From Pseudoruegeria sp. SK021 (GTDB lineage Bacteria; Pseudomonadota; Alphaproteobacteria; Rhodobacterales; Rhodobacteraceae): DNA of 64,000 nucleotides. Location of the stretch: positions 55,573 through 119,572 of the forward strand of contig NZ_MTBG01000007.1 in assembly GCF_002119405.1 (NCBI RefSeq), read 5' to 3'. The notes under the pieces are model-generated. The model was not told where the DNA came from, ran no database searches, and saw only the letters and a list, made by a program, of their open reading frames with translations. The first letter of the stretch is position 1. Each line of letters starts with the position of its first letter. Shown piece after piece: positions 42,682 to 61,435 of the stretch. Both the position numbers and the translations under genes were made by a program.

Positions 42682-42719
42682 TCCAACACATCTCAAGAAC
42701 AATTTACGGAGAATACGGC

Positions 42720-43601: not shown

Positions 43602-43698
43602 GTCTGATGCCCGCGCCGCACGTCGAACCGATGACGGGCGCGGGCACCCAGGCCAGCCGCAGTCAGATTTTCGTCTGATTGCATCAAAAACCTAAGTT

Positions 43699-43720
43699 GG
43701 CCCCGGTGATCTTCGGGGCC
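43699..43720 (+). terminator. Terminator-like hairpin after the uronide operon
   Basis: GGCCCCG and CGGGGCC pair around an 8-nt loop, followed by TATGGTCTTT. It is the likely end of the plus-strand operon beginning at 35288. Confidence 0.55.
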
Positions 43721-43838
43721 TATGGTCTTTCTGCGGCCTTTGGCAGATCACCACGCACAGAATGAGCCAGCACATCCACCGATGCGTCATGCGCAGCGGG
43801 GAGTTATGGGCGAACGCGCCCCATAGGAAATGCCCGGA

Positions 43839-43867
43839 AGGCCCCGGCTTGGCGTTGCCGGGGCTTG
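43839..43867 (-). terminator. Terminator-like hairpin after manD
   Basis: On the minus strand AAGCCCCGGC pairs with GCCGGGGCCTT (small bulge) about 55 bp beyond the manD stop codon. Confidence 0.5.
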
Positions 43868-43921
43868 GCGAAGGGCAGGGATGCCCCTGCCGCTAACAAC
43901 CGCCTTATCGTGGGTCTGGTT

Positions 43922-45401: not shown

Positions 45402-47003
45402 TCACAGGCTTGGACCCCATTTGCCAATCATGATGCCTGAATTATCTTCGTCCCGGCGCATGGCAAAGACAGCGGCGTCGGTCATGGAAACTCGGTTTTT
45501 GCGCCCCGTCAGCCGATCAAGAAGCGCCGATTGCATCTGGTTGCGCACGCCGTCATAGGCCGGATCGCGGCCCAGATCGCAGAACTCGTCAGGATCGGCC
45601 TCCAGATCGAACAATTGTGGCGGGAACCCCCGGAAATAAACGTATTTCCATCGCGCGCTCCGCAGCATGTAGGCCCGGGCATCAGATGGGCCGACGTCCA
45701 ACGCCTCGCGCACGGCGTAGAAAGCGTAGTCGATTTCCGAAAACACCGAATCGCGCCAATCTGCCGGTGTCTCGCCGCAGATCAGGGGCATCAGGGACCG
45801 GCCTTCGAGACGGTGATCCGCCGGCGGCGCGCCAGTGGCATCAAGGAACGTCGGGACAAGATCGATGGCTTCGACCAAGGCGTCGGTGGCGGTGCCGCGG
45901 GTTGCGTCGGCTTCAGGGCGGGGATCATAGATGATCAGCGGCACCCGAACCGAGGCTTCGTGGAACAGTTCTTTTTCGCCCATCCAGTGGTCGCCCAAGT
46001 AGTCACCATGATCCGAGGTAAAGACGATCATGGTCTCTTGATCCTTGCCGGTCTCTTCCAACATGGCAAACACGCGGCCCAAATGATCGTCGATCTGGGT
46101 GATCATGCCCATATAGGCCGGCATCACCACGTCACGGGCGCCGTCCATCGAAAAGGTCTGGCTGACCTCCATGTCCATGAAGGCAGCGTAGACCGGGTTT
46201 GGATTCCGGCGCTCGGCCTCGTCGCGGTGGACGGGCAGGAACGTCTCGGGGCCATACATGTCATGATAGGGGGCCGGGGCCATATAGGGCCAATGCGGCT
46301 TGATATAACTAAGGTGACAGAGCCAAGGCTGCTCGCCGGTCTCGGCAATAAATTCGAGGGCGCGGTCGGTCATATAGGCGGTCTCGGAATGCTCTTCCTT
46401 GACCCGGGCCGGACGGTTTGAATGTTGCAGGTGCCAGCCAGACAACAACGCGCCGTCCGGGCCTTCTGCCGAATTGGCATAATCGTTCCAAGGGTTTTCG
46501 CCGCAATAGCCGTGGTCGCGCAGCCAATCGTTATAGCGCAGCTTGCCGCCCTTGTTCCGCAACAGCGGCGTCGGATGCAGGCCGTCATCCCGCTCATAGG
46601 ATTCGAACCCGGGCTGACTGACGATCATGCCGATCTCGGTCTTAGGGTCGATGCCCAGCCGCGCCATCGCGTCCCGATCCGGCATCATATGGGTCTTTCC
46701 GACCACAGCAGTGCGCATGCCCAAGGGCCGCAGATAATCCCCAAGGGTCAGCTCGCCGATGGGCAGCGGCACCCGGTTCCATGTCGCGCCGTGGCTGAAC
46801 GCAGTACGCCCAGTGTAGCACGACGCCCGCGACGGCCCGCAGACCGGCGATTGCACAAAGGCCCGGTCAAAGCGCAGGCCTTTCGCTGCCAGCTTGTCGA
46901 TATTGGGCGTCTTCAAGTGCGGATGACCATAGCACCCCAGATAATCCCAGCGCAGTTGGTCTGCCATGATGAACAGGATATTCTTGATCTTGATCTTGGT
47001 CAT
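45402..47003 (-). CDS. Sulfatase superfamily hydrolase, phosphonate monoester hydrolase-like
   Basis: A 533-residue cytoplasmic hydrolase of the alkaline-phosphatase superfamily. The formylglycine site is C55 in VCGPSRASCYTGR (CxPxR), and FIMADQLRWDYLGCYG and FTSDHGDYLGDHWMGEKELFHE supply metal ligands. The middle (LSYIKPHWPYMAPAPYHDMYGPE) and the C-terminal KYVYFRGFPPQLFDLEADPDEFCDLG resemble Rhizobium phosphonate monoester hydrolase/phosphodiesterase more than classical arylsulfatases. It needs a formylglycine-generating enzyme encoded elsewhere. It is the last gene of the long minus-strand operon, 4 bp after the TRAP permease gene. Confidence 0.85.
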   Translation of the reverse strand: MTKIKIKNILFIMADQLRWDYLGCYGHPHLKTPNIDKLAAKGLRFDRAFVQSPVCGPSRASCYTGRTAFSHGATWNRVPLPIGELTLGDYLRPLGMRTAVVGKTHMMPDRDAMARLGIDPKTEIGMIVSQPGFESYERDDGLHPTPLLRNKGGKLRYNDWLRDHGYCGENPWNDYANSAEGPDGALLSGWHLQHSNRPARVKEEHSETAYMTDRALEFIAETGEQPWLCHLSYIKPHWPYMAPAPYHDMYGPETFLPVHRDEAERRNPNPVYAAFMDMEVSQTFSMDGARDVVMPAYMGMITQIDDHLGRVFAMLEETGKDQETMIVFTSDHGDYLGDHWMGEKELFHEASVRVPLIIYDPRPEADATRGTATDALVEAIDLVPTFLDATGAPPADHRLEGRSLMPLICGETPADWRDSVFSEIDYAFYAVREALDVGPSDARAYMLRSARWKYVYFRGFPPQLFDLEADPDEFCDLGRDPAYDGVRNQMQSALLDRLTGRKNRVSMTDAAVFAMRRDEDNSGIMIGKWGPSL

Positions 47004-47007
47004 GGGA

Positions 47008-48303
47008 TTACCTCATCAGACCCGGAAGGAAGGTCGCAATGCCGGGCAGCATCAGAACCATTAACAGCGCCAGAACCAGCGCGCCAATATAAGGCAAAAC
47101 GCCATTGAAAATCGCGCCAAGCCGCACATCCGGCAGCACCGATTTGACCACAAAGACATTCATCCCGATGGGCGGCGTGATCAGGCCAATCTCGGACACC
47201 AGAACCACAAGGATCCCGAACCAGATCATATCGACGCCGCTGATCGACAGTGCAGGCAGGAACACCGGCACCAACAAGACCAGAATGCCAATCGATTCAA
47301 AGACCATGCCCATAACGATCGCGATCAGGCAGACAAACAGCACCAGATGGAACGGCGACATCTGCCACGCATCGACAAGGTCCAACAGATCATAGGGCAG
47401 GCCCGACAGGTTGATGAATTGTGAAAACACGATGGCGCCAAGCAGCACGATAAAGATCGTCGCGGTGGTGGTTGTGGCATCGACAAGGCAGGCGCGCCAT
47501 TCGGCCAGACTGCGCATATGGCCGCGTAGGAAGGCAATCACCGCCGCGCCGAATGACCCGATCCCGGCGGCCTCGGTCGCCGTGAAGGCTCCGGTGTAAA
47601 TCCCGCCCAGAACCACCAGAAACAGGATCAAAACCGGCATGGTGCCGCGCACCGCTTGCTTGTGCCGTGCGGCATCCAGCGGCGGGGCTGGCGGAGCGGA
47701 GGCCGGGTTGCGGCGCACGGTGATCCCGACCGCGATCATGAACAAGGTGACCAGCAACAGTCCCGGCAAAATCCCGGCGATGAACAGCAGACCGATATCC
47801 TGCTCGGCGATCAACCCATAGATCACCAGTGGCACAGAGGGCGGGATCATGATCCCCAACGTGCCGCCAGCGGCAATAGTCCCCGCCGCAAGCTGATCGG
47901 AATATTTATAGTGGCGCATGGGCGGCATTGCGACCTTGGCCATAGTGGCCGCGGTGGCCAGCGTTGATCCGCAGACCGACGAAAACCCGCCCGCCGCCAG
48001 CACCGTGGCCAGCGCGAGCCCGCCGCGAAACCGCCCAAGTGCGCCATAAGCCGCATCATAAAGATCGCTGCTGATCCGGGCATGGACAATGAACACGCCC
48101 ATCAGAATGAATAGCGGGATCACGCTGAGATTGTAGTTCATGCTGTCGTGAAAGACCTGCTGACCGACCATGGCCAGCGATGGCCCAATGCCGCGGATAT
48201 AGGCAAAACCAAGAAAGCCAACGATAAGGGTCGCAAATCCGACACGAAACCCCAAGAAACACAGGGTGAGCAGCAGGGCGAAGCCCACCAGCGCGATAGC
48301 CAT
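47008..48303 (-). CDS. TRAP transporter large permease, DctM family
   Basis: A 431-residue inner-membrane protein with about twelve spans. It has FSSVCGSTLATAATMAKVAMPPMRHYKYSDQLAAGTIAAGGTLGIMIPPSVPLVIYG, the conserved DctM core, and GLITPPIGMNVFVVKS near the C-terminus. It is the Na+-driven translocating subunit of a TRAP importer. Its ATG at 48303 overlaps the small permease stop by one base (TAATG); an upstream extension of the frame lies within that gene. Confidence 0.93.
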   Translation of the reverse strand: MAIALVGFALLLTLCFLGFRVGFATLIVGFLGFAYIRGIGPSLAMVGQQVFHDSMNYNLSVIPLFILMGVFIVHARISSDLYDAAYGALGRFRGGLALATVLAAGGFSSVCGSTLATAATMAKVAMPPMRHYKYSDQLAAGTIAAGGTLGIMIPPSVPLVIYGLIAEQDIGLLFIAGILPGLLLVTLFMIAVGITVRRNPASAPPAPPLDAARHKQAVRGTMPVLILFLVVLGGIYTGAFTATEAAGIGSFGAAVIAFLRGHMRSLAEWRACLVDATTTTATIFIVLLGAIVFSQFINLSGLPYDLLDLVDAWQMSPFHLVLFVCLIAIVMGMVFESIGILVLLVPVFLPALSISGVDMIWFGILVVLVSEIGLITPPIGMNVFVVKSVLPDVRLGAIFNGVLPYIGALVLALLMVLMLPGIATFLPGLMR

Positions 48304-48800
48304 TAAAGGGTCTCCGGGGTTGGGTCTGAGGAGGGTGGTTTGCCGACAATCAGGCCCAGAACCTGACACAGGACACTAAGCGCAGCTAAGGCGGCGACAC
48401 TGCCTGAAATCCATGGCAGCGGCCATTCTAGAACGATGGTTGTCGATCCGCGGTGGGCCGCTTCACTGGCCTGGTTGAACAGGACATAGACGATCAGGCA
48501 CATGGTCAGGATCGAAAAGCCCTGTACGAGGATGTCATACAGGCGGGGCGCAAGCTGGCGCACCCTGCCATCGACCAGTTCAACCACCACGTGCTTATCT
48601 TGGGCATTGGCAAGTCCAAGGCCAAGAAAAATCACCAGCGCCAGCATGGTGCTGATCATTTCAGTTGCGCCAAAGATCGGCGCGCCGAACACATATCTGC
48701 CGACCACATCGACAAAGGTGAGAAGCATCATGCCGGCAAGCACCAGACTCGCAAGGACTTCGAGTGTTTGAACGATGCGGGTCAGGATAATTGCCGCCAT
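48303..48800 (-). CDS. TRAP transporter small permease, DctQ family
   Basis: A 165-residue protein with four membrane spans. LEVLASLVLAGMMLLTFVDVVGRYVFGAPIFGATEM at the start is the DctQ signature region, and LALVIFLGLGLANAQDKHVVVELV is the second conserved block. It assembles with the DctM subunit downstream and lies between it and the binding-protein gene, completing a three-gene TRAP set. Confidence 0.92.
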   Translation of the reverse strand: MAAIILTRIVQTLEVLASLVLAGMMLLTFVDVVGRYVFGAPIFGATEMISTMLALVIFLGLGLANAQDKHVVVELVDGRVRQLAPRLYDILVQGFSILTMCLIVYVLFNQASEAAHRGSTTIVLEWPLPWISGSVAALAALSVLCQVLGLIVGKPPSSDPTPETL

Positions 48801-48833
48801 GATCTTACTCCATCTAACTGGGGAAACGGACGA

Positions 48834-49841
48834 TCACTCGGCCAGTTGCGCTTGGTAGAAACCCAACGCGGCTTGCGCATCGATGCCGGTCGCGGTTGCA
48901 TCCGCAATCCAGCCTTCGGTGACGAAAGCAGACGCATCGACCAGAGCGGCCTCAAATGCCGGGTCCGCCTGAACCACGGTCAATCCAGCCTCTGGATAGG
49001 CCGCCTCGGCCACGGCGGCGGCGGCGTTCCAGCGCGCCCCGAAAGATGCGCCCAACACGTCGCCGGAGATGCTCATGATCGCTTCTTGATCTTCGGGGGA
49101 AATGCTGGCCCAGGTATTGGCGTTCATCACCACTGAGAAGGACGTGGTGTAAACCGCAGCCTCAAATGCGGTGTTGGATTTGGTGTAGGGCATCAACTGG
49201 AACGCCTGAAGCGCCTGCGGGTCCAGCCCGATATGGCCGTCGACCACCCCGCGCGAGATGATCTCGCTTGCCGCAACCGCCGGGGTCGAGACGACACCGG
49301 ACCCCAGTTGCTTGAGGATCTCGGCCAATGGCCCCGGCAGCGCCCACATCTTGCGCGCCGTCAGATCCGCAATCGACGTAATCGGCGCCGAGGTCTGGCT
49401 GTACAACTCGCCCGGTGAAATCACGAACTGCGACAGCAACTGCACGCTGTCAAACTCGTCCGGGAAATAGGCGCGGTTGGTTGCCCACAGCGCCCGGGAC
49501 ATCTGCTCGGCGTCATGTGTGCCGATGAACGGCTGCATCGCCACCAGTGGGCCTTGTACGCGATTGGCGATCAAGCCGTTAAACTGCACGGCCACATCGA
49601 CGATGCCATTTTCCACCGAGGACAGTTGATCCGGTGGCGGCGCAACCGAATTGGGCGGGATGTTGCCCTTCACCCGGCCATCGGTCACCCGCTCAACCTC
49701 ATCCAGCCAACCGGGCAGGATTTCGCTACAGGCAAAATGGCTCGACGGCCAAAAGCAATTGACCAACAGGCGGGTATTGGCCGAAGCGGTGTTTGCGCCG
49801 ACCAGAAGCGCAGCGATCGCAACAGTTGTTCTCAGTGTCAT
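48834..49841 (-). CDS. TRAP transporter substrate-binding protein, DctP family
   Basis: A 335-residue periplasmic protein with a signal peptide (MTLRTTVAIAALLVGANTASA, cleavage near residue 21). DctP features include NSVAPPPDQLSSVENGIVDVAVQF near 65-90, ITSIADLTARKMWALPG with the ligand-contacting arginine region, and GVVDGHIGLDP. TRAP binding proteins usually take organic acids. It follows the BKACE gene by 36 bp, so it belongs to the same operon. The ligand is unknown. Confidence 0.92.
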   Translation of the reverse strand: MTLRTTVAIAALLVGANTASANTRLLVNCFWPSSHFACSEILPGWLDEVERVTDGRVKGNIPPNSVAPPPDQLSSVENGIVDVAVQFNGLIANRVQGPLVAMQPFIGTHDAEQMSRALWATNRAYFPDEFDSVQLLSQFVISPGELYSQTSAPITSIADLTARKMWALPGPLAEILKQLGSGVVSTPAVAASEIISRGVVDGHIGLDPQALQAFQLMPYTKSNTAFEAAVYTTSFSVVMNANTWASISPEDQEAIMSISGDVLGASFGARWNAAAAVAEAAYPEAGLTVVQADPAFEAALVDASAFVTEGWIADATATGIDAQAALGFYQAQLAE

Positions 49842-49877
49842 TGGTGTTCTCCTCCCAGAGATGTGGAACGTTGATGC

Positions 49878-50813
49878 TTAGAACGCCACGCGATCGCCGC
49901 CCTTCAGCGCAAGGATGTCGCGGGCTTCGTCTGGGGTTGCGACCTCGCAGCCAAGGTCTTCGACAATCCGGCGGATCTTGGTGACCTGCGCTGCGTTGCT
50001 TTCAGCCAGTTTGCCCCGCGACAGAAACAGGCTGTCTTCCAGCCCGACCCGCACATTGCCGCCCATCTGGCTGGCGGTGGTGGCAAGCGGCATTTGCGCG
50101 CCGCCTGCACCCAGCACCGACCAGCGATAATCGGTGCCGAACAGCCGGTCGGCGGTGCGCTTCATGAAGACCAAATTGTCGACCTCAGGGCCAATGCCAC
50201 CAAGAATGCCAAAGATGAACTGGATAAAGACCGGGGCTTTGAACAGCCCGATATCCATGCAGAATTTCAGGTTATAGAGATGGCCGACATCATAGCATTC
50301 ATGTTCGAACTTGATGTCATGCGGGGCCAGCGTATCGGCGGCTTCCTTGATGTCGCGGAACGTATTGCGGAAGATGTTGCCGTCCGAATTCTTGACGTAA
50401 TCCTTTTCCCAGTCAAACTTCCAATCGTCGTCGCTGTAGCGGTTGGCAAGCGGATGGAACGAAAAATTCATTGACCCCATGTTCAGCGAACACATTTCAG
50501 GGCTGAAGGTTTTTGCCGGGGTGATCCGATCCTGAATCGACAGACTAAGCGAACCCCCGGTCGAGATGTTGATCACCGCATCGGTCGCCTGTTTGACCCG
50601 TGGCAAGAAGGGCGAGAAATCCGCGATATCGACCGAAGGCGCGCCGGTCTCAGGATTGCGTGCGTGCAGGTGCAAGATCGACGCGCCAGCCTCGGCAGCC
50701 TCAATCGCCTGTTTGGCGATGTCATCATAGGTATAGGGCAGGGAGTCTGACATCGTTGGGGTATGAATGGCCCCGGTGATTGCGCAGGTGATGATTGTTT
50801 TCTGGCGTGCCAT
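49878..50813 (-). CDS. Beta-keto acid cleavage enzyme (BKACE, DUF849)
   Basis: A 311-residue TIM-barrel enzyme. KTIITCAITGAIHTPTMS at the start, AEAGASILHLHARNPETGAPS near residues 40-60, and ISTGGS carry the zinc histidines and substrate residues of DUF849 proteins such as Kce. These enzymes transfer the acyl part of a beta-keto acid to acetyl-CoA, releasing acetoacetate. Its substrate depends on the pathway and is unknown here. The neighbouring 3-hydroxyacyl-CoA-dehydrogenase-like gene could produce the beta-keto acid. It is 3 bp from the permease gene upstream in the operon. Confidence 0.92.
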   Translation of the reverse strand: MARQKTIITCAITGAIHTPTMSDSLPYTYDDIAKQAIEAAEAGASILHLHARNPETGAPSVDIADFSPFLPRVKQATDAVINISTGGSLSLSIQDRITPAKTFSPEMCSLNMGSMNFSFHPLANRYSDDDWKFDWEKDYVKNSDGNIFRNTFRDIKEAADTLAPHDIKFEHECYDVGHLYNLKFCMDIGLFKAPVFIQFIFGILGGIGPEVDNLVFMKRTADRLFGTDYRWSVLGAGGAQMPLATTASQMGGNVRVGLEDSLFLSRGKLAESNAAQVTKIRRIVEDLGCEVATPDEARDILALKGGDRVAF

Positions 50814-50815
50814 GG

Positions 50816-51856
50816 TCAGGCTCCTTTTTGGTCGTCGCGGGTGCTGTCGGGGCGCACAACGCGATACCCGAGCGGAAAGAGTTGAAGGTTGAACCGGTCT
50901 TTGATCAGGCCCCAGATGCCCTTGGGCGCCTTCAGCATGATCACGATGGCGACCAGCCCCAGAACCATCAGATAGATCGTCCCGAGATCGGCCAGCGTCT
51001 CGCGCAGGGCAAAGAACACCAAGGTGCCGATGATCGGACCCTCAATGGTGCCAATGCCGCCGATGACGACGATAAAGATCACGAACGCGGTCCAGTCATT
51101 GACGCTGAATGCGGCGTCGGGCGAGATCCGAAGCTTTTGCAGAAAGATCAACGCGCCGACCATGGCGGTCATCGCAGAGGTCACGATATAGACCAGAAAC
51201 TTGGTGCGGAAGATGTCGATACCAAGGCTGCGCGCCGCCAGTTCGTTGTCACGGATCGCGGTCAGGGCAAGCCCGTTGCGCGACCGCAGAAACAGGTAGA
51301 CCGCGGCGACCACCAGAACGGCCATGCCCAGTGCCAGCCAATAGCTTAGCGCCTCACGCGCGTCGCGGCCATCGGCCATGGCGCGAACGATGTTTGCGGG
51401 CAACGACGTCCCGGATCCGCCGCCAAGCGCGGACACTTGGGCAAAGCTCAGGCGGAAAACCTCGGCCATCACCCATGTGCCGATGGCGAAATAGGCCCCG
51501 CGCAACCGAAAGATCAGTGCCGCCACCGGAACCGAGATCGCCGCCCCCAACAGGCCCGCAATCGCAATTGCTACCACCGGGTTTAACCCGCCAAAGATCG
51601 TCAACGCGAACAACATGTAGCCGCCGAACCCGACATAGGCCTGCTGGCCTACGGACACCAATCCGGCATATCCGGCCATCAGGTTCCACAAGCTTGCCAG
51701 CGCGAGATACAAGAATACCTCACCCATCAAGCGCATATCGGCGCGGCCTGCCCACCACGGGGCGGCGATCAGGATCAGCAGGATGATCAGGCCAAGCAGC
51801 CCCGCCAACCGGGAGGCGTTGGATCCGCGCGTGACGCGATAGCCTTGCACGCTCAT
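50816..51856 (-). CDS. Branched-chain amino acid-type ABC permease, LivM family
   Basis: A 346-residue permease. It contains YAGLVSVGQQAYVGFGGYMLFAL, the LivM-type GRALTAIRDNELAARSLGID motif (here GLALTAIRDNELAARSLGID) and GGIGTIEGPIIGTLVFF. ATG 51856 overlaps the upstream LivH stop by four bases; the open frame extends to 52006 but that part lies in livH. LIV-type importers in this group often take aromatic or short organic acids or amides rather than amino acids. Confidence 0.92.
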   Translation of the reverse strand: MSVQGYRVTRGSNASRLAGLLGLIILLILIAAPWWAGRADMRLMGEVFLYLALASLWNLMAGYAGLVSVGQQAYVGFGGYMLFALTIFGGLNPVVAIAIAGLLGAAISVPVAALIFRLRGAYFAIGTWVMAEVFRLSFAQVSALGGGSGTSLPANIVRAMADGRDAREALSYWLALGMAVLVVAAVYLFLRSRNGLALTAIRDNELAARSLGIDIFRTKFLVYIVTSAMTAMVGALIFLQKLRISPDAAFSVNDWTAFVIFIVVIGGIGTIEGPIIGTLVFFALRETLADLGTIYLMVLGLVAIVIMLKAPKGIWGLIKDRFNLQLFPLGYRVVRPDSTRDDQKGA

Positions 51857-52716
51857 GCCGACACCCGTGGGAACAGACCATTGGGACGCACCGCAAGGAT
51901 CAGAAGAAAGACGATGTGGCCCGCCAATATTTGCCAGCCGGGATCGATCTTGGCCCCGACGGTCTGCGCGACCCCCAAGATGACGCCACCCGCCAACGTG
52001 CCCCACAGATTGCCAAGGCCGCCGATGATCACCGCTTCAAACCCGAAGATTAGCCGCCCGCCGCCGATGGACGGATCAAAGCTGGTGCGGATACCCAGAA
52101 AAATCCCGCCAATCGCGGTGACTGCCAGCGCCAGTGCCATGGCCAGACCAAAGATGTGCCGTTTGTTCAGCCCCATCAGTTGGGCGATGTCCTGATTGTC
52201 AGAAACCGCCCGGAACGACCGACCAAGCGCGGTGTGGTAGAACATCCACTGCAATCCGGCGATCACCCCGACAGCGACAACGAATGTCAAGATCGGCAGC
52301 AGGCCCAGCGACAAGCTTCCGACCGACACGCTGGCCGTTTCCAAGGCGCCGCCGTTCATCTTTTGCGGATCGGCGGAATAGCCTTCCAAAAGCACGTTTT
52401 GGATGATGACCGACAGACCGAACGTAACCAGAAGCGGCGGCAAAAGATCATCGCCCAGCGTGTGGTTCAGGATGCCCCGTTGCAGGACATAGCCAATGGC
52501 GGCCATCATTGGGATCACCAGCACAAGCGCCAGAAGCGGATGCACGCCAAGCGCGACCGAGGTGGTCAGCCCAAGATAGGCCGCCATAACGATCAGATCG
52601 CCATGAGCAATATTGACCAGTCGCATGACCCCAAAGATCAGCGACAACCCGGCGGCAAACAACGCATAGAGCCCGCCCAGCAATGCCCCTTGAATGACAG
52701 CGTTTACCCAGTCCAT
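51853..52716 (-). CDS. Branched-chain amino acid-type ABC permease, LivH family
   Basis: A 287-residue permease that begins MDWVNAVIQGALLGGLYALFAAGLSLIFGVMRLVNIAHGD, the LivH hallmark. The EAA-like loop is YHTALGRSFRAVSDNQDIAQLMGLN near residue 185, and GGLGNLWGTLAGGVILG lies near the end. ATG 52716 is the family start; the longer frame to 52776 is not. It is followed by livM with a four-base overlap and preceded by the livF ATPase gene one base away. Confidence 0.92.
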   Translation of the reverse strand: MDWVNAVIQGALLGGLYALFAAGLSLIFGVMRLVNIAHGDLIVMAAYLGLTTSVALGVHPLLALVLVIPMMAAIGYVLQRGILNHTLGDDLLPPLLVTFGLSVIIQNVLLEGYSADPQKMNGGALETASVSVGSLSLGLLPILTFVVAVGVIAGLQWMFYHTALGRSFRAVSDNQDIAQLMGLNKRHIFGLAMALALAVTAIGGIFLGIRTSFDPSIGGGRLIFGFEAVIIGGLGNLWGTLAGGVILGVAQTVGAKIDPGWQILAGHIVFLLILAVRPNGLFPRVSA

Positions 52717-52717
52717 G

Positions 52718-53425
52718 TCATGCGATCCCGAAATAGGCGCGACTGATGTCGTCGCGCGATACAGTTGCAGAGTCACCTTCCAGCGAGACTCGGCCTTCTT
52801 GCAGGCAATAGACGCGGCTCGATACCGACAACGCCTTGCTGATGTCTTGCTCGACGATGACCGCGCTCATACCGCCGCCAACGATGCCGGGCAGGGCGGC
52901 GTAAATGTCCCGGATGATAATCGGCGCAAGGCCAAGGCTGATCTCGTCGAACAGGATCAGGTCCGGATTGGCCATCAGCGCCCGACCGATAGCCACCATC
53001 TGTTGCTGCCCGCCGGACAACGAGGTTGAGGCCTGATGCCGCCGGTCTTGCAAGATCGGAAACAACTCATAGACTTTGGACAAGGACCACGGGCCAGCCC
53101 GTTTGACGCGCCCACCGATCAGCAGGTTTTCCTCGACCGACAGTGACGGGAAAAGCTGCCGGCCTTCGGGGACAAGGGCGATGCCAAGACTGGCCACCTG
53201 ATCGGCCCGCAACGCACCAATGGGCGTGCCGCGATACCGGATTTGCGCTGCCCCGTTGGACATCAGGCCTGAGATCGAGCGCAGCAATGTGGTCTTGCCC
53301 GCGCCGTTCGATCCGATGATCGCCAGCACCTCGCCGGGGGCAAGTGTCAGGTTCAGCCCATAGAGCGCCTGAAAATCGCCGTAATGGGCATCCAGCCCAC
53401 GGATGTCGAGAATGGGCTCAGGCAT
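52718..53425 (-). CDS. LIV-type ABC transporter ATPase, LivF family
   Basis: A 235-residue ATPase. Walker A GSNGAGKTT near 37, signature SLSGGQQQMVAIGRALM near 134, Walker B LILFDEISLGLAP near 153, the last being the typical LivF variant. ATG 53425 lies inside the final codons of livG (8-bp overlap), so the two ATPases are coupled. A TTG nine bases upstream is a less likely start. Confidence 0.92.
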   Translation of the reverse strand: MPEPILDIRGLDAHYGDFQALYGLNLTLAPGEVLAIIGSNGAGKTTLLRSISGLMSNGAAQIRYRGTPIGALRADQVASLGIALVPEGRQLFPSLSVEENLLIGGRVKRAGPWSLSKVYELFPILQDRRHQASTSLSGGQQQMVAIGRALMANPDLILFDEISLGLAPIIIRDIYAALPGIVGGGMSAVIVEQDISKALSVSSRVYCLQEGRVSLEGDSATVSRDDISRAYFGIA

Positions 53426-54146
53426 CAATTTCAATCCCCAGATAGATTTCCTGCACGTCGCGGCTGGCCATGACAGTTTTGGGATCGCCCTCGGCGATCT
53501 TCTTGCCGAAATCGATAACGATCAGCCGATCGACAACCGCCAGCAAGGCATGCACCACATGCTCGATCCAGATGATCGACACGCCGGATGCGTGAATGTC
53601 TTTGATGGTGCGGACCAGCGATGTGCATTCCGCCTCGGTCAGTCCGCCGGCGATTTCATCCAGCAACAGCAGCTTGGGCTTGGCACAAAGCGCCCGGGTC
53701 ATTTCCAGCCGCTTGCGATCAAGCAGCGTCAGTTTGCCGGCCAGCGTATTGGCTTTGGCCAACAGCTCGGTCTGGTCCAGCACCTCAAGGCAAAGGCGCT
53801 CTGCCGCCGCGCCGGAGAGGCCCGCCGCCTGCGTTGCGGCCACCATCGCGTTCTCGAATACCGTCAGGCCAGAGAACGGTTGCGGCACCTGAAAGCTGCG
53901 CGCGATCCCGGCGCGGCTGCGGGTAGCGGCCGATTGGCCGGTGACATCGCGGCCATCGAACTGCACCCGGCCACTGTCGGGCATCAACGTGCCGGTAATC
54001 AGGTTGAACATGGAGGTCTTGCCCGCACCGTTCGGTCCGATCACGCCCAGCGCTTCGCCTTGCGCCAAGGTAAAACTTTGATTGTCCGCAACGGTGACCG
54101 CGCCGAAGGACTTGGCCACGTTGTCCAATTTCAAAATCGTCGACAT
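53418..54146 (-). CDS. LIV-type ABC transporter ATPase, LivG family
   Basis: A 242-residue ATPase beginning MSTILKLDNVAKSFGAVTVADN. Walker A GPNGAGKTSMFN near 39, LDRKRLEMTRALCAKPKLLLLDEIAGGLTEAE for the signature/Walker B region near 145-170, and IIWIEHVVHALLAVVDR for the H loop. The usual signature LSxGxQ is degenerate (LTLLDRKRLEMTRAL), a variant seen in some LivG proteins. GAGG precedes the ATG at 54146. Confidence 0.9.
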   Translation of the reverse strand: MSTILKLDNVAKSFGAVTVADNQSFTLAQGEALGVIGPNGAGKTSMFNLITGTLMPDSGRVQFDGRDVTGQSAATRSRAGIARSFQVPQPFSGLTVFENAMVAATQAAGLSGAAAERLCLEVLDQTELLAKANTLAGKLTLLDRKRLEMTRALCAKPKLLLLDEIAGGLTEAECTSLVRTIKDIHASGVSIIWIEHVVHALLAVVDRLIVIDFGKKIAEGDPKTVMASRDVQEIYLGIEIDA

Positions 54147-54201
54147 TTCGGTCCTCGGAGGTTGTGACGCGGGCACCGGAACGGCCGGTGCCCGCCGACG
54201 A

Positions 54202-55476
54202 TCAGTTGAGCAGGACCAATTCACCGGTCAGCGGGATCTCAGGGGCCAAGGCGTTCGCCACGATCTTCAGATCGAAACCGTCGCCGTCATTTTGCCATTG
54301 TCCAGCCACCAGCGGGGTCTTTGTGACGTTGTTGATCGGACCGGTTGCCCAATCCACGTTCCCGACAATGGTGTTGAGGTTGGTCGTGGCAATCGCCTCG
54401 ACGATGGCTTCGGGGTCTTCCAGATCAGAGGCGCGTTGGATCACGTCGGCCACCACTTCAAACAGCGCGTGTTTGAACCCGATGGGTTGGGTCCAAGGCC
54501 GCCCCGTCGCGAGCGTATATCCCTCCGCCAATTCCCGGGCACTGGCCCCGGTCAGCGACGACGCGAACGGATGGTTCGGCGACCACCAGACTTCAGACGA
54601 CAGGCCATTGCCCCGGGCCCCAAGGCTGTCGATGACCGATGGGAACAACAGCGCCTTGCCGATGGTGACAATCTTGGGGTTGAAGCCTTGCTGGGCTGCC
54701 TGGCTCCAGAAGGTGGCAAAGTCCGGCGGGATCATGTTGCCGGTGACAATCTCACATCCAGCCGCCTTGAATGCCGCGATCTGGTTGCTGAAATCATCCG
54801 ACAATGGCTGATACCGGCCCGGATCGATCAGCGTATAGCCCGCCGCTGCCAGCGGTGTCGGCAAGCCAAGCTCGGCGTCGCCCCATGCGTTGCCGTCGGC
54901 GTCGTTCGGGAACAGGCCGCCGACCGTCTTAGGCACGCCCGATCCGTCCCACATATCAAGGAACGCGCCGATGACATCCTCAAGACCCCAGAAGAAGTGA
55001 TAGGTAGACCGGAATCCTTCGCCCGGAATGCCGTTGCGGCCAAAGAAATAAGGCTGCCACGGGCAATCCGTGGTGAGGCAGGGTACGTCGTTAATCTCGG
55101 CCTGATCCGCGACCGGGTTCACCGTATCGGGGGTTGAGGCGGCAACGATGATATCAACCTCATCACCAAGGATCAGGTCCGCGGCCACCTCGGCGGCGCG
55201 GTTCGGGTTCGACTGGCTGTCCTTCGAGATGATCTCGACCGTCCAGGTCTTGCCGTTATTGTCCAGTCCGGCGGCAAAGGCCTCTTGAATGGCGCTGAGG
55301 ACGTAATCGTCCGCCTCGGCGAAGCCCGCCAGCGGGCCTGTGCGCGGACTGACATGGCCGATGCGCAGGGTCGGGGTAGCGGCATAGGCGCGTGTGCTGC
55401 GCAGGATCGCCGGGGCGGCGATCAGGGCGGTTGCCCCGGTTAAAAAGCTGCGGCGCGATGGATATGTTATCTTCAT
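54202..55476 (-). CDS. LIV-type ABC substrate-binding protein with Tat signal
   Basis: A 424-residue periplasmic ligand-binding protein of the ANF-receptor fold. The N-terminus MKITYPSRRSFLTGATALIAAPAIL is a twin-arginine signal (R8, R9), implying export in a folded state, which is unusual but known for this class. Mature segments include RIGHVSPRTGPLAGFAEAD and ADLILGDEVDIIVAASTPDTVNPVADQAE. It initiates import through the LivFGHM proteins encoded downstream. The ligand is unknown but probably the pathway's starting compound or a derivative. Confidence 0.9.
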   Translation of the reverse strand: MKITYPSRRSFLTGATALIAAPAILRSTRAYAATPTLRIGHVSPRTGPLAGFAEADDYVLSAIQEAFAAGLDNNGKTWTVEIISKDSQSNPNRAAEVAADLILGDEVDIIVAASTPDTVNPVADQAEINDVPCLTTDCPWQPYFFGRNGIPGEGFRSTYHFFWGLEDVIGAFLDMWDGSGVPKTVGGLFPNDADGNAWGDAELGLPTPLAAAGYTLIDPGRYQPLSDDFSNQIAAFKAAGCEIVTGNMIPPDFATFWSQAAQQGFNPKIVTIGKALLFPSVIDSLGARGNGLSSEVWWSPNHPFASSLTGASARELAEGYTLATGRPWTQPIGFKHALFEVVADVIQRASDLEDPEAIVEAIATTNLNTIVGNVDWATGPINNVTKTPLVAGQWQNDGDGFDLKIVANALAPEIPLTGELVLLN

Positions 55477-55520
55477 CTCTCTCTCCTCCCAGAAAGTGGC
55501 ACCTTGTGGCGGTGCCTGCG

Positions 55521-56447
55521 TTAGTCGTGCAGAATCCCTTCAAGCCGGGTCAAGTGTCGCGCGACCCGGGCACGAACCTCATCGGCCTCTTCCGGGGTCC
55601 ATGTGCGGAACCCTTCCCCTGATTTCATGCCCAGCCGTCCCTCCGTGACAAGCTGTTGCAAATAGGGCGAGGGGCCTTGTCGGCTTTCAAGGTCGAACAG
55701 GACGTTCTCATGAATATCCAGCGTCAGGTCCGTGCCGACGAGATCGGCGTTCTCTAGCGGGCCAAGCACTGCCAGTCTGCGGCCAAAACTGGATTTGATG
55801 ACCGTATCGACAGCGGCGGCATCACAGATTCCGTTTTCGACCAGACTGATCGCCTCGCGCCAAAGCGCGTGTTGCAGGCGGTTGCCAATGAACCCCGGCA
55901 CATCCTTTTCGACCATCACCGGCGTCTTGCCGGCGTCAGCCAGCAGTGCCAGCATCCGATCGGCCACAGCGGCGTCGGTCCACTCGGTCTTGATCACCTC
56001 GACGAGGGGGATCATGTGCGGCGGGTTCCACCAATGGGTGCCAAGGGCGCGGTGGCGACCGGAAAGCCCGTCCATGATCTTGGTGATCTGGATGACCGAG
56101 GTGTTGGACGCAAGGATCGCTTCGGCTGGCGCAGACGCCTCGATCTCAGCAAAGATCGCCTGCTTCAGCGCCAGTTTTTCAGGCGCGGCTTCAAACACGA
56201 CATCCGCTTTACCCACTGCCGCCTCGACCGTGGCGCTAAGGGTAACGTTTGCCAGCGCTGCGCCGGTCTCAGCATCTGACGCCCCCAACGCTTTCAGGCT
56301 GGCCGAGATGCGGGCAGGGGCGCTGTGTAGGGTGTCGTCATGCGGGTCGGTAAGAGTGACACTGTGCCCGGCCCGTGCCAGCGTCAGGGCAATGCCGTGC
56401 CCCATTAGCCCGGCGCCGATCACGGCGATCTGAAGGTGCGTGTCCAT
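55521..56447 (-). CDS. 3-hydroxyacyl-CoA dehydrogenase family NAD-dependent dehydrogenase
   Basis: A 308-residue enzyme. The Rossmann motif is IAVIGAGLMGHGIALTLARAGH; ASNTSVIQITKI and GTHWWNPPHMIPLVEVIKTEWT provide the active-site histidine region, and VPGFIGNRLQHALWREAISLVENG begins the C-terminal domain. Length and motifs fit single-substrate relatives such as L-carnitine or L-gulonate 3-dehydrogenases rather than beta-oxidation enzymes. With BKACE in the same operon, it probably oxidises a free beta-hydroxy acid to the beta-keto acid that BKACE cleaves. The gene follows the SDR gene by 3 bp. Confidence 0.87.
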   Translation of the reverse strand: MDTHLQIAVIGAGLMGHGIALTLARAGHSVTLTDPHDDTLHSAPARISASLKALGASDAETGAALANVTLSATVEAAVGKADVVFEAAPEKLALKQAIFAEIEASAPAEAILASNTSVIQITKIMDGLSGRHRALGTHWWNPPHMIPLVEVIKTEWTDAAVADRMLALLADAGKTPVMVEKDVPGFIGNRLQHALWREAISLVENGICDAAAVDTVIKSSFGRRLAVLGPLENADLVGTDLTLDIHENVLFDLESRQGPSPYLQQLVTEGRLGMKSGEGFRTWTPEEADEVRARVARHLTRLEGILHD

Positions 56448-56450
56448 GGA

Positions 56451-57248
56451 TCAACCCGCCGTATAGCCGCCATCGGCGTATAGAATGTGCCCGGTGTAGA
56501 AATCGCTGGCCTTCGAGACGAGAAACAGCAGCGGCCCGGCAAGGTCTTCGGGTTCGCCCAGACGGCCCTTGGGCACGCGTGCCAGAAATCCGGCGCGCAC
56601 TGCCGCAGCCTTTTCGGTGTCTTCAAACATCCAAGCGGTCAGGGGCGAGCGGAATACCGTCGGCGCAATGGCGTTCACCGTAATGCCGGTCGCACCAAGT
56701 TCACAGCCAAGCGCCTTGACCATGCCATCTGTCGCCGCCTTTGAGGCGCAATAGGCAGTATAGCCTGCCGGATGACCCAGAAGCCCGCGTGCCGAAGACA
56801 CCAGAACGATCTTGCCGCCATGGCCCTGCGCTTTCATCTGACCGGCGGCGGCCCGGGCCAAAAGCCAGCTTTGGGTGACGTTGGCATCCATGACCGAGGT
56901 GAAGGTCTCTGGCGTCATGTCGTTGATCAGCGCCACTTTGTTCATGCCCGACGCCACAACCAGAATGTCGAGCTTGCCATAGGCCGCGATCGCCTGTGCC
57001 ACCAGATCGGCGCAGATGTCTTCGTCGGTGGGGCGGGTGTTGATCGCCGTGACCTCGGCCCCCATGCCGCGGCATACTTCCGCGATATCCGTGAGGGCGG
57101 CTTGGTTGCCTGCGACCAGAACCAGCTTACAGCCAGCGCCTGCCAGAATTCGGGCCGCGACCATGCCGAAGGCCCCAGAGGCGCCAGTGATCAGCGCCAC
57201 CTGATCTTTCACCTCGAACATGGAAAGGGGGTTTGCCATTGCAGTCAT
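56451..57248 (-). CDS. Short-chain dehydrogenase/reductase
   Basis: A 265-residue SDR. The cofactor motif is ALITGASGAFGMVAARILAG, the structural motif VVASGMNK, and the catalytic YxxxK is in GYTAYCASKAATDGMVKALG with a serine about 13 residues earlier (VLVSSARG). GGAGG lies ten bases before the ATG at 57248; a second ATG at 57239 is possible. It closely resembles gluconate 5-dehydrogenase-like SDRs. In this operon it may oxidise or reduce an intermediate upstream of the beta-keto acid step. Confidence 0.9.
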   Translation of the reverse strand: MTAMANPLSMFEVKDQVALITGASGAFGMVAARILAGAGCKLVLVAGNQAALTDIAEVCRGMGAEVTAINTRPTDEDICADLVAQAIAAYGKLDILVVASGMNKVALINDMTPETFTSVMDANVTQSWLLARAAAGQMKAQGHGGKIVLVSSARGLLGHPAGYTAYCASKAATDGMVKALGCELGATGITVNAIAPTVFRSPLTAWMFEDTEKAAAVRAGFLARVPKGRLGEPEDLAGPLLFLVSKASDFYTGHILYADGGYTAG

Positions 57249-57263
57249 GTCTTTGGCCTCCGT

Positions 57264-57608
57264 TCAGGTTGTCGAGGGGTAGGGGATAACGACGAGCATC
57301 TTGCAGACATCGTTGCTGCGGTTCTCGATCTTGCGCACTTCTATCGGGGGGATGGTGCAGCTGTCGTACTTGCGCAGAACGGTTTCGACGCCGTCGACGA
57401 TCACGGTCATTTCGCCCTCAAGAACGATATAGACCTTCTCGAACGGGGTTGAATCCGGCCCTGCGCCGCCACCGGGCAGAAACTGACTGAAGCCGATCCA
57501 CTGGTTCTTTGGACCGTTGTCCTCAAAACCCTGTAACCGCAGACCGTGACAGCCGAAATGGTTCACAGCGTTGTATGGCTGTGCGTCCTGAAATCGCTTC
57601 AGGTGCAT
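57264..57608 (-). CDS. Small cupin-domain protein
   Basis: A 114-residue single cupin. The first cupin box is reduced: FLPGGGAGPDSTPFEKVYIVLEGEMTVIVDG lacks the usual HxH pair, keeping only the glutamate/lysine positions; the second box CTIPPIEVRKIEN has lost its histidine as well. GGGAGGAG precedes ATG 57608. With few metal ligands left, it may be an isomerase-like or binding protein rather than a metal oxygenase. It lies between the cyclase and SDR genes of the operon. Confidence 0.82.
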   Translation of the reverse strand: MHLKRFQDAQPYNAVNHFGCHGLRLQGFEDNGPKNQWIGFSQFLPGGGAGPDSTPFEKVYIVLEGEMTVIVDGVETVLRKYDSCTIPPIEVRKIENRSNDVCKMLVVIPYPSTT

Positions 57609-57679
57609 GGTATCTCCTCCCTTGATCACCCCGGTTGGAAGACCGGCCACCCCTCCTCGGGCGGCCGGTCAACGGGTCT

Positions 57680-58516
57680 TTAGAACTCGGCGCCGTCGTC
57701 GATGCGGAAGTTCTGGCTTTTGTCGATCATCGCCACGAGCCGGATGATGCAGCCATCGCCACGGTCCCAGTTCCATGGGAAGAACGCGAAGGTGCAACGT
57801 TTTCCGGTAACCGCATCCAGATCGCCGCCGACGTTTTCGATGCCGAGAATGCCATTCTTGAACAGGATCTGGTGCACCGGTTCCCATTTCGGGAAGGCGT
57901 CTTTCCAATCCACGCCGCCGGACCATTCCTTGTACTCTTCTTCCAGATGCGGCAGCAGCGGACCGTTGCGCTGTGGGCCGATCGCGGTGGCCAGCGGGTG
58001 GTCATTGGCCTGCGTATCGTGGCCGACAACCTTGATGCCTTTTTCGACCATCCATTCGCCGGCCGTTTCCACGAAGCCGGGGCAATAGGCGAAATAATCA
58101 CCGTCCTCGTAGTCGTGATGCCAGCCGGTATTGATGATCAGGACATCGTTTTTGCGGATGACATGGCCACATGCCTTTTCCAGATCCTCGCCGGTGATCG
58201 GCTCCCATTTCTTTTTGGGCAAGCTGACCACGATGCCGGTGCCAAAGAAATGTGGCAGCGGCACTTCATCGATAAACGGCGTGCCCTGAACCACATGTGC
58301 AGGGGCGTCGATATGGGTGGTGGCATGCATGGTTGTGGTGATGCGTTGGCTCAGCACACCGGATTTGGCCATGTAATGGATCCGCTCGATTTTCGTGTCC
58401 TGAAAATACGGCCAGTTCGGGTTCTGAAAGCCGAAGCGGTGGCTTAGATTATAGAACTCGAGCCCCATGTCATTGTCGGTGTTTCCCTGAAACTCGATCC
58501 CGCGCACTTTGACCAT
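57680..58516 (-). CDS. Cyclase family metal hydrolase (kynurenine formamidase / isatin hydrolase fold)
   Basis: A 278-residue protein of the Cyclase family (PF04199 type). The metal motif reads MHATTHIDAPAHV (H64, H68, D70, H74 from this start); the family consensus HxGTHxDxPxH has glycine where this has threonine. VLIINTGWH and VVGHDTQANDH match later conserved blocks. Members hydrolyse cyclic amides, formamides or lactone-like rings with Mn or Zn. ATG 58516 is preferred since AAGGGG lies about nine bases upstream, too close to the ATG at 58525. It is the first gene of the 14-gene operon. Confidence 0.87.
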   Translation of the reverse strand: MVKVRGIEFQGNTDNDMGLEFYNLSHRFGFQNPNWPYFQDTKIERIHYMAKSGVLSQRITTTMHATTHIDAPAHVVQGTPFIDEVPLPHFFGTGIVVSLPKKKWEPITGEDLEKACGHVIRKNDVLIINTGWHHDYEDGDYFAYCPGFVETAGEWMVEKGIKVVGHDTQANDHPLATAIGPQRNGPLLPHLEEEYKEWSGGVDWKDAFPKWEPVHQILFKNGILGIENVGGDLDAVTGKRCTFAFFPWNWDRGDGCIIRLVAMIDKSQNFRIDDGAEF

Positions 58517-58609
58517 TGGATACATCCCCTTGTTCGCCCGAAAGGCGTCTTTGCGTCCTGAAATTGCAGAGAAGCTCCTCCCCTCTAGCCCGTATAGTGA
58601 TACATACCC

Positions 58610-58622
58610 ACCGCATCGCGGT
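58610..58622. promoter_or_regulatory. IclR-type operator, copy 1
   Basis: ACCGCATCGCGGT, a near-perfect dyad, lies in the divergent promoter of the cyclase operon and the iclR gene. A second copy is 43 bp away. Confidence 0.72.
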
Positions 58623-58652
58623 CAATAAAGACTTCACTTATGGTTGCTTTGC

Positions 58653-58665
58653 ACCGCATTGCGGT
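58653..58665. promoter_or_regulatory. IclR-type operator, copy 2
   Basis: ACCGCATTGCGGT differs from copy 1 at one base. Both are followed by NNATAA, so the repeat unit is longer than the dyad. The 43-bp spacing is about four helical turns. Confidence 0.72.
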
Positions 58666-61024: not shown

Positions 61025-61082
61025 CCGACCCTGCGGGCGGCCTGGACCCAGCCGCAGGGCATAGGACCGGGCCGTCTGCAGG

Positions 61083-61304: not shown

Positions 61305-61435
61305 ATCGAAACCTCCTATGGTCATGCCGTAGGAGTCATATGTTGAACACCCGGTGTTTCACCAATCAGAACAGGAGGTTATCCCCAAAGTTTGGGAGAA
61401 CCGGGAATGGTTCCGGATAGCGAGTCTGGGGGTTT

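What the first reader, a model, noticed from the sequence alone, without database searches (positions are those of the whole stretch)
45402..58516. Fourteen-gene operon joining two importers, BKACE and a fGly hydrolase
Cyclase, cupin, SDR, 3-hydroxyacyl-CoA-dehydrogenase-like enzyme, LIV ABC importer, BKACE, TRAP importer and a sulfatase/PMH-like enzyme are packed on one strand with short gaps or overlaps. A plausible scheme is ester hydrolysis, ring or amide opening by the cyclase, oxidation to a beta-keto acid, and BKACE cleavage to acetoacetate and an acyl-CoA. I know no described pathway with this set; it is the best candidate for a new catabolic system in the window.
Basis: inference. Interest (0 to 1): 0.7.

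Follow-up and report, generated by a model that had tools for sequence, protein, structure and literature searches.

The report
Operon for sulfated phloroglucinol catabolism
A run of 14 genes packed on one strand of a likely marine bacterium is predicted to import and break down phloroglucinol, a seaweed and plant phenol, and likely its sulfate ester, by a ring-opening pathway already described in Clostridium, together with a small cupin protein whose predicted helper role is untested.

Summary
In detail: 14 genes on the minus strand, 58525 to 45402, with gaps of -8 to 71 bases. The pathway is not unknown: SDR, cyclase, 3HCDH-like enzyme and BKACE are the four classes that Zhou et al. 2023 (PMC10470551) showed to degrade phloroglucinol in Clostridium scatologenes. 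Residues agree in part: the cyclase W-P-Y and the dehydrogenase Ser-His-Asn spacing are kept; the BKACE passes an NCBI model named for 3,5-dioxohexanoate but lacks CsTAL's Trp16; the SDR is closest in the PDB to 5g4k (phloroglucinol reductase, recalled) but lacks its NADPH-motif Arg. Independent support: phloretin/DAPG-hydrolase-like genes lie inside 4 of 80 sister gene runs, gamma-resorcylate-decarboxylase-like genes near 13. Two parts go beyond the published text: a cupin without metal-site histidines, near the cyclase in 72 of 72 long-enough loci and found in exactly the same 9 of 101 genomes as the cyclase; and an optional TRAP-importer plus arylsulfatase module, predicted to bring in phloroglucinol sulfate, which is reported from brown seaweeds. 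I call it a new variant of a known pathway; substrates and the cupin's role are untested.

The parts
58725..59492 (+). Divergent IclR-family regulator
   Evidence: PF01614 106.9 bits; an IclR gene of 35% identity or more is near the cyclase in 66 of 72 loci
58603..58662 (-). Predicted operator/promoter: two ATGCGGTG copies (in 58603-58616 and 58650-58662), the downstream one just after a conserved TTGACC
   Evidence: Similar but not identical sites in an alignment of 19 IclR-cyclase gaps; each pattern alone is expected 0.2-0.3 times in the window by chance; prediction
57680..58525 (-). Cyclase-family hydrolase, predicted dihydrophloroglucinol ring-opening enzyme
   Evidence: PF04199 110 bits; W38-P-Y40
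57264..57608 (-). Cupin without the usual metal-ligand histidines, predicted helper (tautomerase or binding partner) of the cyclase
   Evidence: PF07883; near the cyclase in 72 of 72 loci; same 9 of 101 genomes as the cyclase; Arg92 invariant in 60 of 60
56451..57248 (-). SDR, predicted phloroglucinol reductase
   Evidence: Best PDB match 5g4k 176 bits, next 139; NADPH-motif Arg absent
55521..56447 (-). 3HCDH-family dehydrogenase, predicted 3-hydroxy-5-oxohexanoate dehydrogenase
   Evidence: PF02737; Ser117/His138/Asn189 with the CsTfD spacing
54202..55476 (-). LIV-type ABC importer, binding protein
   Evidence: PF13458
53418..54146 (-). LIV-type ABC importer, ATPase 1
   Evidence: PF00005; start
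52718..53425 (-). LIV-type ABC importer, ATPase 2
   Evidence: PF00005; start
51853..52716 (-). LIV-type ABC importer, permease 1
   Evidence: PF02653; start
50816..51856 (-). LIV-type ABC importer, permease 2
   Evidence: PF02653; start
49878..50813 (-). BKACE, predicted 3,5-dioxohexanoate:acetyl-CoA transferase (triacetate cleavage)
   Evidence: NF053538 530.4 bits, cut-off 430
48834..49841 (-). TRAP importer, binding protein DctP
   Evidence: PF03480
48303..48800 (-). TRAP importer, small permease DctQ
   Evidence: PF04290
47008..48303 (-). TRAP importer, large permease DctM
   Evidence: PF06808; start
45402..47003 (-). Formylglycine-type arylsulfatase, likely cytoplasmic
   Evidence: PF00884; 4upi 627 bits; AS-type Lys/His pair; C-x-P-x-R at residue 55; no signal peptide evident by eye

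Best explanation
The 14 packed genes at 58525-45402 are predicted to encode catabolism of phloroglucinol by the pathway described in Clostridium scatologenes, with the last four genes likely importing and desulfating phloroglucinol sulfate. Predicted steps: (1) the TRAP importer brings in the sulfate ester and the LIV-type ABC importer the free phenol; (2) the arylsulfatase, likely cytoplasmic, releases phloroglucinol; (3) the SDR reduces it to dihydrophloroglucinol, likely with NADH rather than NADPH; (4) the cyclase opens the ring to 3-hydroxy-5-oxohexanoate, likely helped by the cupin, which would bind the diketone and ease its keto-enol change; (5) the 3HCDH-like enzyme oxidises this to 3,5-dioxohexanoate, returning the reduced cofactor; (6) the BKACE converts it with acetyl-CoA to acetoacetate and acetoacetyl-CoA, which enter central metabolism. 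Shown here: gene content, conservation, residues and gene linkage. Inferred: every substrate, the cofactor, the transport roles and the cupin's role.
For: Same four enzyme classes as the reconstituted pathway (PMC10470551). SDR best PDB match 5g4k by 37 bits. Cyclase W38/Y40 as CsDPGC Trp20/Tyr22. Dehydrogenase Ser-His-Asn at 117/138/189, the spacing of CsTfD 122/143/194; its best PDB match, 4om8 at 188 bits against 145 for the next, acts on a free acid by name, not a CoA ester. BKACE over the cut-off of NF053538, named for 3,5-dioxohexanoate. DAPG/phloretin-hydrolase-like genes inside 4 of 80 sister gene runs and gamma-resorcylate-decarboxylase-like genes near 13 of 80. Arylsulfatase orthologs of 63% or more lie 8.8-13.5 kb from the cyclase in 7 of the 11 genomes that have one, of 49 searched. 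Two FGE-family loci and a CoA-transferase pair in the genome. Phloroglucinol sulfate reported from seaweeds, with phlorotannin sulfates in brown ones (PMC12432060, passages).
Against: SDR lacks the NADPH-motif Arg of the known reductases. BKACE has Ile16, not CsTAL's Trp16. The cyclase is only 35% identical to that of A. noterae, my stand-in for CsDPGC, and the A. noterae SDR is itself less like 5g4k (37%, no PTVFRS-LT-WMF stretch). 14 of 61 long loci lack this BKACE type and 2 of 72 lack the dehydrogenase nearby; SAR116 loci carry an intradiol dioxygenase there instead. The sulfatase ortholog is not near the cyclase in 4 of 11 genomes, and the nearest same-genus cluster (G006) has neither TRAP genes nor sulfatase beside it. 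The published pathway ran in vitro without a cupin. I saw no expression or growth data for this operon.
Confidence: 0.7

Rival explanations
1. The core degrades free phloroglucinol, but the TRAP importer and arylsulfatase are a general aryl-sulfate (or other) scavenging cassette that merely landed next to it.
For: TRAP-sulfatase cassettes stand alone in G135 (two) and G136; of 49 cyclase-bearing genomes 38 have no sulfatase of 63% or more; the same-genus cluster in G006 lacks the module.
Against: 7 of 11 genomes with this sulfatase have it 8.8-13.5 kb from the cyclase; more distant sulfatases (51-56%) sit beside the core in G133, G020 and L014, and G033 pairs its own TRAP and a 68% sulfatase with a sister cluster; in the window it is 4 bases from DctM in the same run.
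Confidence: 0.3
2. The operon uses a relative of phloroglucinol (a substituted phloroglucinol or another ring that becomes a 1,3-diketone on reduction), so the intermediates carry an extra group.
For: SDR and BKACE differ from the characterised enzymes at tested positions; the cyclase is far from the clostridial type (35%); sister two-cyclase clusters with other end genes exist.
Against: The BKACE passes a model named for the unsubstituted C6 product; the cyclase keeps W-P-Y; upstream genes in sister loci point to phloroglucinol itself.
Confidence: 0.15
3. One reading: a phosphodiester or phosphonate, a cyclic amide or a betaine pathway.
For: The cyclase family includes an isatin amide hydrolase (named in PMC10470551); BKACEs include carnitine-related members (recalled).
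Against: Sulfatase residues are of AS, not PMH type; the cyclase has Trp/Tyr, not the Ile/Leu of isatin hydrolase; the BKACE passes the 3,5-dioxohexanoate model while its three other BKACE matches stay below cut-off.
Confidence: 0.05

Closest known systems
Phloroglucinol gene cluster of Clostridium scatologenes: PGR, DPGC, TfD, TAL (Zhou et al. 2023, PMC10470551)
   Same: The same four enzyme classes, the cyclase W-P-Y, the dehydrogenase Ser-His-Asn spacing, and a regulator and transporter in the cluster.
   Different: ABC and TRAP importers instead of the MFS transporter; a cupin and an arylsulfatase, neither named in the paper's main text (its supplements were not seen); another BKACE subfamily; no NADPH-motif Arg in the SDR. 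The C. scatologenes proteins could not be compared directly.
Cluster of Acetoanaerobium noterae (L091, Clostridia)
   Same: Cupin, SDR, 3HCDH, cyclase and BKACE adjacent on one strand; W20/Y22 in the cyclase as in CsDPGC, and Trp in the BKACE at the position of CsTAL Trp16.
   Different: Cyclase 35% and BKACE 33% identical to the window's; SDR and dehydrogenase with Arg after the second strand; a weak DAPG-hydrolase match next to it.
Arylsulfatase SpAS1 (PDB 4upi)
   Same: 627 bits over nearly the whole length and the Lys/His pair that marks arylsulfatases.
   Different: Its natural substrate is not stated in the passages I read; the window's enzyme is linked to the phloroglucinol core.
Manganese cupin TM1459
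   Same: Nearest solved fold to the cupin model: TM-score 0.83, 26% identity.
   Different: The metal-ligand histidine positions are replaced in the operon's cupins (Asp, Thr or Ala, Lys, Arg in the alignment); that TM1459 uses four His is recalled.

Membership tests
Phloroglucinol reductase (SDR) | Closest to the characterised reductase among solved SDRs | tested here: met
   5g4k/5g4l 176 bits, next 139; 42% identity; that 5g4k is the Clostridium PGR is recalled
Phloroglucinol reductase (SDR) | TR(S/N) motif for the 2'-phosphate of NADPH | tested here: not met
   TGRN in 5g4k aligns with VAGN; so no claim of an NADPH-dependent PGR is made
Dihydrophloroglucinol cyclohydrolase | Trp20 and Tyr22 in place of Ile/Leu of isatin hydrolase | tested here: met
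   W38 and Y40 in W-P-Y-F; absent from both paralogs of the genome (by eye)
Dihydrophloroglucinol cyclohydrolase | Mn-dependent ring opening of dihydrophloroglucinol | not testable with these tools
   Needs an assay; the cyclase model was too poor to use (pLDDT 50)
Triacetate-forming dehydrogenase (TfD) | Catalytic His and substrate Ser/Asn at 122/143/194 | tested here: met
   117/138/189, same spacing
Triacetate-forming dehydrogenase (TfD) | Loss of the CoA-binding Lys56 and Asn221 of hydroxybutyryl-CoA dehydrogenase | not tested
   The clostridial enzymes are in the hit list but their alignments were not printed
Triacetate acetoacetate-lyase, CsTAL type | Trp16 in place of Glu14 of the lysine-pathway enzyme | tested here: not met
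   Ile16 in the window; not filed as CsTAL type
3,5-dioxohexanoate:acetyl-CoA acetone transferase (NF053538) | Score over the curated cut-off | tested here: met
   530.4 bits against 430; the experiment behind the model's name was not seen
Arylsulfatase (AS) rather than phosphonate monoester hydrolase (PMH) | Lys and His beside the nucleophile (Tyr and Thr or Asp in PMH) | tested here: met
   GKTHM aligns with GKTHM of 4upi and with Tyr/Thr of 2vqr
Arylsulfatase (AS) rather than phosphonate monoester hydrolase (PMH) | C-x-P-x-R formylglycine site | tested here: met
   CGPSR at residue 55
Metal-dependent cupin enzyme | His metal ligands (HxH and a later His) | tested here: not met
   The HxH reads D-S-T in the window and the second-motif His is Arg92, invariant in 60 of 60 cupins aligned

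The most novel reading that the evidence does not exclude
Phloroglucinol breakdown has a fifth dedicated protein: a metal-free cupin that acts as keto-enol tautomerase or ring-opening partner of the cyclase, from Alphaproteobacteria to Clostridia. In Rhodobacteraceae like this one the operon has been extended by a TRAP importer and a cytoplasmic arylsulfatase into a route for sulfated brown-algal phloroglucinol, run as a closed NADH loop between reductase and dehydrogenase.
Probability: 0.3. Interest if true: 0.7.

Novelty: new variant of a known kind. Interest (0 to 1): 0.5.

Why it matters
Phloroglucinol units build brown-algal phlorotannins and the A ring of flavonoids (recalled), and phloroglucinol and phlorotannin sulfates are reported from brown seaweeds (PMC12432060). 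If right, the operon gives a gene marker for bacteria that mineralise the monomer and its sulfate, and makes two questions directly testable: what the ever-present cupin does, and whether such bacteria take up aryl sulfates whole and desulfate them inside the cell. It would also correct annotation: relatives of the cyclase are named kynurenine formamidase, and of the BKACE 3-keto-5-aminohexanoate cleavage protein, in public records.

Tried and rejected
Considered and rejected: a new, undescribed pathway (the set is described in PMC10470551); phosphonate or phosphodiester hydrolysis by the sulfatase-like enzyme (AS residues); kynurenine formamidase for the cyclase (TIGR03035 41 bits against a cut-off of 223); beta-D-galactosidase for the cupin (NF050094 94 bits against 175).

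Tried, little gained: a structure of the cyclase from an 11-row alignment (pLDDT 50), not used further. Paper searches that combined phlorotannin or phloroglucinol with sulfatase, marine or Rhodobacteraceae terms listed 3, 7 and 4 papers, judged by title and abstract start not to cover this operon. Phloroglucinol plus cupin plus degradation plus cyclase gave 0 papers. The C. scatologenes proteins could not be fetched, so A. noterae (same W20/Y22 numbering) stands in for them; a search for relatives of its cyclase showed no protein named as C. scatologenes in the 120 of 909 listed.

Rows dropped before counts: 8 of 80 loci with under 2.5 kb 3' of the cyclase are left out of the 72, and 19 with under 9 kb out of the 61. 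In one search one weak decarboxylase match among the 80 (L055, 29%) is not counted; two of the 13 decarboxylase loci (L049, L077) and one of the four DAPG-hydrolase loci (L071) are the sources of the queries, and the match in L037 is only 38%. In one search, 50 of the 80 loci were given and 49 searched (L014 not held). The 11 genomes with a sulfatase of 63% or more include a partial copy at a contig edge (G114), counted as not near the cyclase. Of the two cyclases in L092 only the better match was checked for W-P-Y.

Full report
OBSERVATION. Pfam gives, in order of transcription: Cyclase, Cupin_2, SDR, 3HCDH, five LIV ABC importer genes, BKACE, DctP, DctQ, DctM and Sulfatase. A divergent IclR gene precedes them. 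Promoter-like and terminator-like patterns inside the run are not in clear excess over shuffles. The next gene on the strand, an enolase-family enzyme, starts 253 bases further on.

WHERE IT IS. The genome is G000, 3.97 Mb in 189 contigs. Genome G006, listed as the same genus, has its cyclase at the same coordinates, on a contig of the same length (134,567), as Fluviibacterium aquatile SM1902, now Meridianimarinicoccus aquatilis. So the window is from a close relative in the Rhodobacterales; a marine habitat is inferred.

THE FOUR ENZYMES. Zhou et al. 2023 (PMC10470551; Results, Discussion and cloning section read; other passages) purified a reductase (SDR, PGR), a cyclase-family hydrolase (DPGC), a 3HCDH-family dehydrogenase (TfD) and a BKACE (TAL) from C. 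scatologenes, and reconstituted phloroglucinol to dihydrophloroglucinol, 3-hydroxy-5-oxohexanoate, triacetate, then acetoacetate plus acetoacetyl-CoA. They report such clusters in marine alpha- and gammaproteobacteria, Mycobacterium and others. The window has the same four classes. Test by test: (a) SDR: best PDB match 5g4k/5g4l at 176 bits, the next at 139, 42% identical; 5g4k is the Clostridium PGR by recall. A stretch PTVFRS-x-LT-x-WMF is shared. The Arg of TGRN, part of the NADPH motif in the paper, is Gly here; 16 of 16 other SDRs that I aligned from proteobacterial and mycobacterial clusters also lack an Arg there, while that of the anaerobe A. noterae has it. In the 3HCDH rows in view (part of the output was cut), the window and eight others have Asp after the second strand, Novosphingobium has Glu, and A. 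noterae has Thr-Arg-Asn. I read this as a likely move to an NADH loop; the contrast rests on one anaerobe, and CsTfD itself is reported to prefer NADH. (b) Cyclase: W38-P-Y40 matches CsDPGC Trp20/Tyr22; both paralogs in the genome lack the pair, as do the sister two-cyclase clusters where checked. (c) 3HCDH: Ser117-His138-Asn189 with the spacing of CsTfD. (d) BKACE: 530 bits to NF053538, 3,5-dioxohexanoate:acetyl-CoA acetone transferase, cut-off 430, but Ile16 where CsTAL has Trp16. The A. noterae BKACE has the Trp and stays below the cut-off of NF053538 (228 bits). So two BKACE subfamilies may serve the same step.

CONSERVED CORE. Of 72 loci with at least 2.5 kb 3' of the cyclase, cupin and SDR are near in 72 and HCDH in 70. 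Of 61 with at least 9 kb, the LIV permease is near in 58 and this BKACE type in 47 (identity limits and a 12 kb distance in that script). Annotated plasmids show the same set, plus an MBL-fold gene, in Pacificitalea and Aminobacter. Novosphingobium has the five-gene core with an MFS transporter in place of the ABC genes. Mycobacterium riyadhense has SDR, cyclase, cupin, a different BKACE, and 3HCDH similarity in an unannotated gap. A wider draw found the cyclase in 7 of 398 genomes of the phylum, the window's own included, at E<=1e-40. I fetched five of the other six: all five have cupin, SDR and HCDH, and four have the BKACE (the fifth contig ends first), among them G432, listed only as the same phylum.

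INDEPENDENT SUPPORT FOR PHLOROGLUCINOL. Sister loci carry genes for likely sources of phloroglucinol. DAPG/phloretin-hydrolase-like genes lie inside the gene run in L027, L037, L039 and L071 (4 of 80; L071 PF18089 at 146.5 bits, cut-off 22.7; L037 only 38% identical to it) and in L157 of the fetched regions; a weak match (22.1 bits, below cut-off) follows the A. noterae cluster. Gamma-resorcylate-decarboxylase-like amidohydrolases (L077: best PDB match gamma-resorcylate decarboxylase, 220 bits) lie in the fetched flanks of 13 of 80 loci at 61% or more to one of two queries. None of these 17 loci is among the nine with a sulfatase of 51% or more linked to the core (L004, L005, L006, L014, L016, L044, L057, L064, L072). 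That these enzymes make phloroglucinol is inferred from their families.

THE CUPIN. It was the surprise. Among 101 genomes (the window's own plus 100 relatives) the cupin (E<=1e-8) and the cyclase (E<=1e-60) occur in exactly the same 9, and at these limits neither occurs in the other 92. In 8 of the 9 they are adjacent; in G046 they are on different contigs, the cyclase at a contig end. Cyclase-cupin fusions occur among database proteins: P0026, P0038 and P0052 read through both domains (P0083, P0095 and P0099, of the six fetched, look garbled or shortened). The A. noterae cluster begins with a cupin 48% identical to the window's. AF2 gives a confident barrel (pLDDT 93), nearest to the manganese cupin TM1459 (TM 0.83). 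The metal-ligand positions are not His: D-S-T for HxH in the window, and an Arg invariant in 60 of 60 cupins aligned. The paper's main text never names a cupin, and its pathway ran without one in vitro. A metal-free cupin beside a slow ring-opening hydrolase (CsDPGC kcat about 1 per second), with a substrate that changes between enol and ketone, suggests a tautomerase or binding helper. This is inference and my least certain step (about 0.3).

THE TRAP-SULFATASE MODULE. The sulfatase matches 4upi (SpAS1, so named in PMC5488252, passages) at 627 bits and has the arylsulfatase Lys/His pair, not the Tyr/Thr of a phosphonate monoester hydrolase. It has the C-x-P-x-R site, no signal peptide evident by eye, and the genome has two FGE-family loci. 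Orthologs of 63% identity or more occur in 11 of 49 cyclase-bearing genomes searched; seven lie 8.8-13.5 kb from the cyclase on the same contig, by matching contig lengths and coordinates. In five of these seven TRAP genes lie beside the sulfatase; in G139 and G146 they were not found beside it, and in G146 it is on the other strand. Four are not near: G112, G135, G136, and a partial copy in G114; TRAP-sulfatase cassettes stand alone in G135 (two) and G136. Other sulfatases, of 51-56%, sit beside the core in G133, G020 and L014, and G033 has a sister two-cyclase cluster with TRAP genes and a 68% sulfatase. In the 101-genome search only G000 and G033 have a copy of 63% or more. The module is thus an add-on that recurs with this core. 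Phloroglucinol sulfate was annotated by mass spectrometry in seaweeds and goes with the phlorotannin sulfates of brown ones, wakame excepted (PMC12432060, passages). That it is the natural substrate here is inferred.

REGULATION AND EXIT. The IclR-cyclase gap holds two copies of ATGCGGTG, with similar sites in an alignment of 19 such gaps, the downstream one just after a conserved TTGACC: a predicted operator and promoter. The consensus scan did not list a sigma-70 promoter there. A CoA-transferase pair is in the genome, fit to activate acetoacetate.

VERDICT. What is added is a variant: a conserved cupin that the published main text does not mention, another BKACE subfamily, a likely change of cofactor, and a TRAP-arylsulfatase entry module.

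Noticed in passing
27793-45148: A likely uronate or oligosaccharide cluster beside the operon: mannitol-dehydrogenase-family enzyme, UxuA mannonate dehydratase, two GntR-FCD regulators, an epimerase-family gene, a sugar-type ABC importer, a DUF4962 plus heparinase II/III protein, and an enolase-family enzyme on the operon's strand.
   Followed up: partly
60629-63975: Traces of mobile DNA upstream of the IclR gene: a weak integrase match, a Mob_Pre relaxase-type ORF and a DDE transposase fragment at the window edge.
   Followed up: no
L092 9171-12544 and L141 11666-15363: Sister clusters with two cyclase domains, no W-P-Y where checked, cupin, SDR and 3HCDH; no BKACE was found near, L092 has a fumarylacetoacetase-family gene, L141 TRAP genes and a 68% sulfatase. 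Possibly a related ring-opening pathway for another substrate.
   Followed up: partly
L068 17560-20265 and L072 12936-13802: SAR116 loci have an intradiol dioxygenase (and in L068 a FAD aromatic hydroxylase) next to the core and no BKACE of this type: a possible oxidative branch.
   Followed up: no
L085 18001-19104: On plasmid pSC52_2 a 97% identical cyclase start (first 115 residues) is followed at once by an IS5-family transposase gene.
   Followed up: no
L137 6521-7333 and L138 10706-11518: A glutathione-S-transferase-family gene (Pfam for L137; L138 by similar sequence start) lies between BKACE and sulfatase in these two loci.
   Followed up: no
1051-1381: tmRNA gene with tag ANDNKAPMALAA, listed by ARAGORN with an asterisk.
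   Followed up: no
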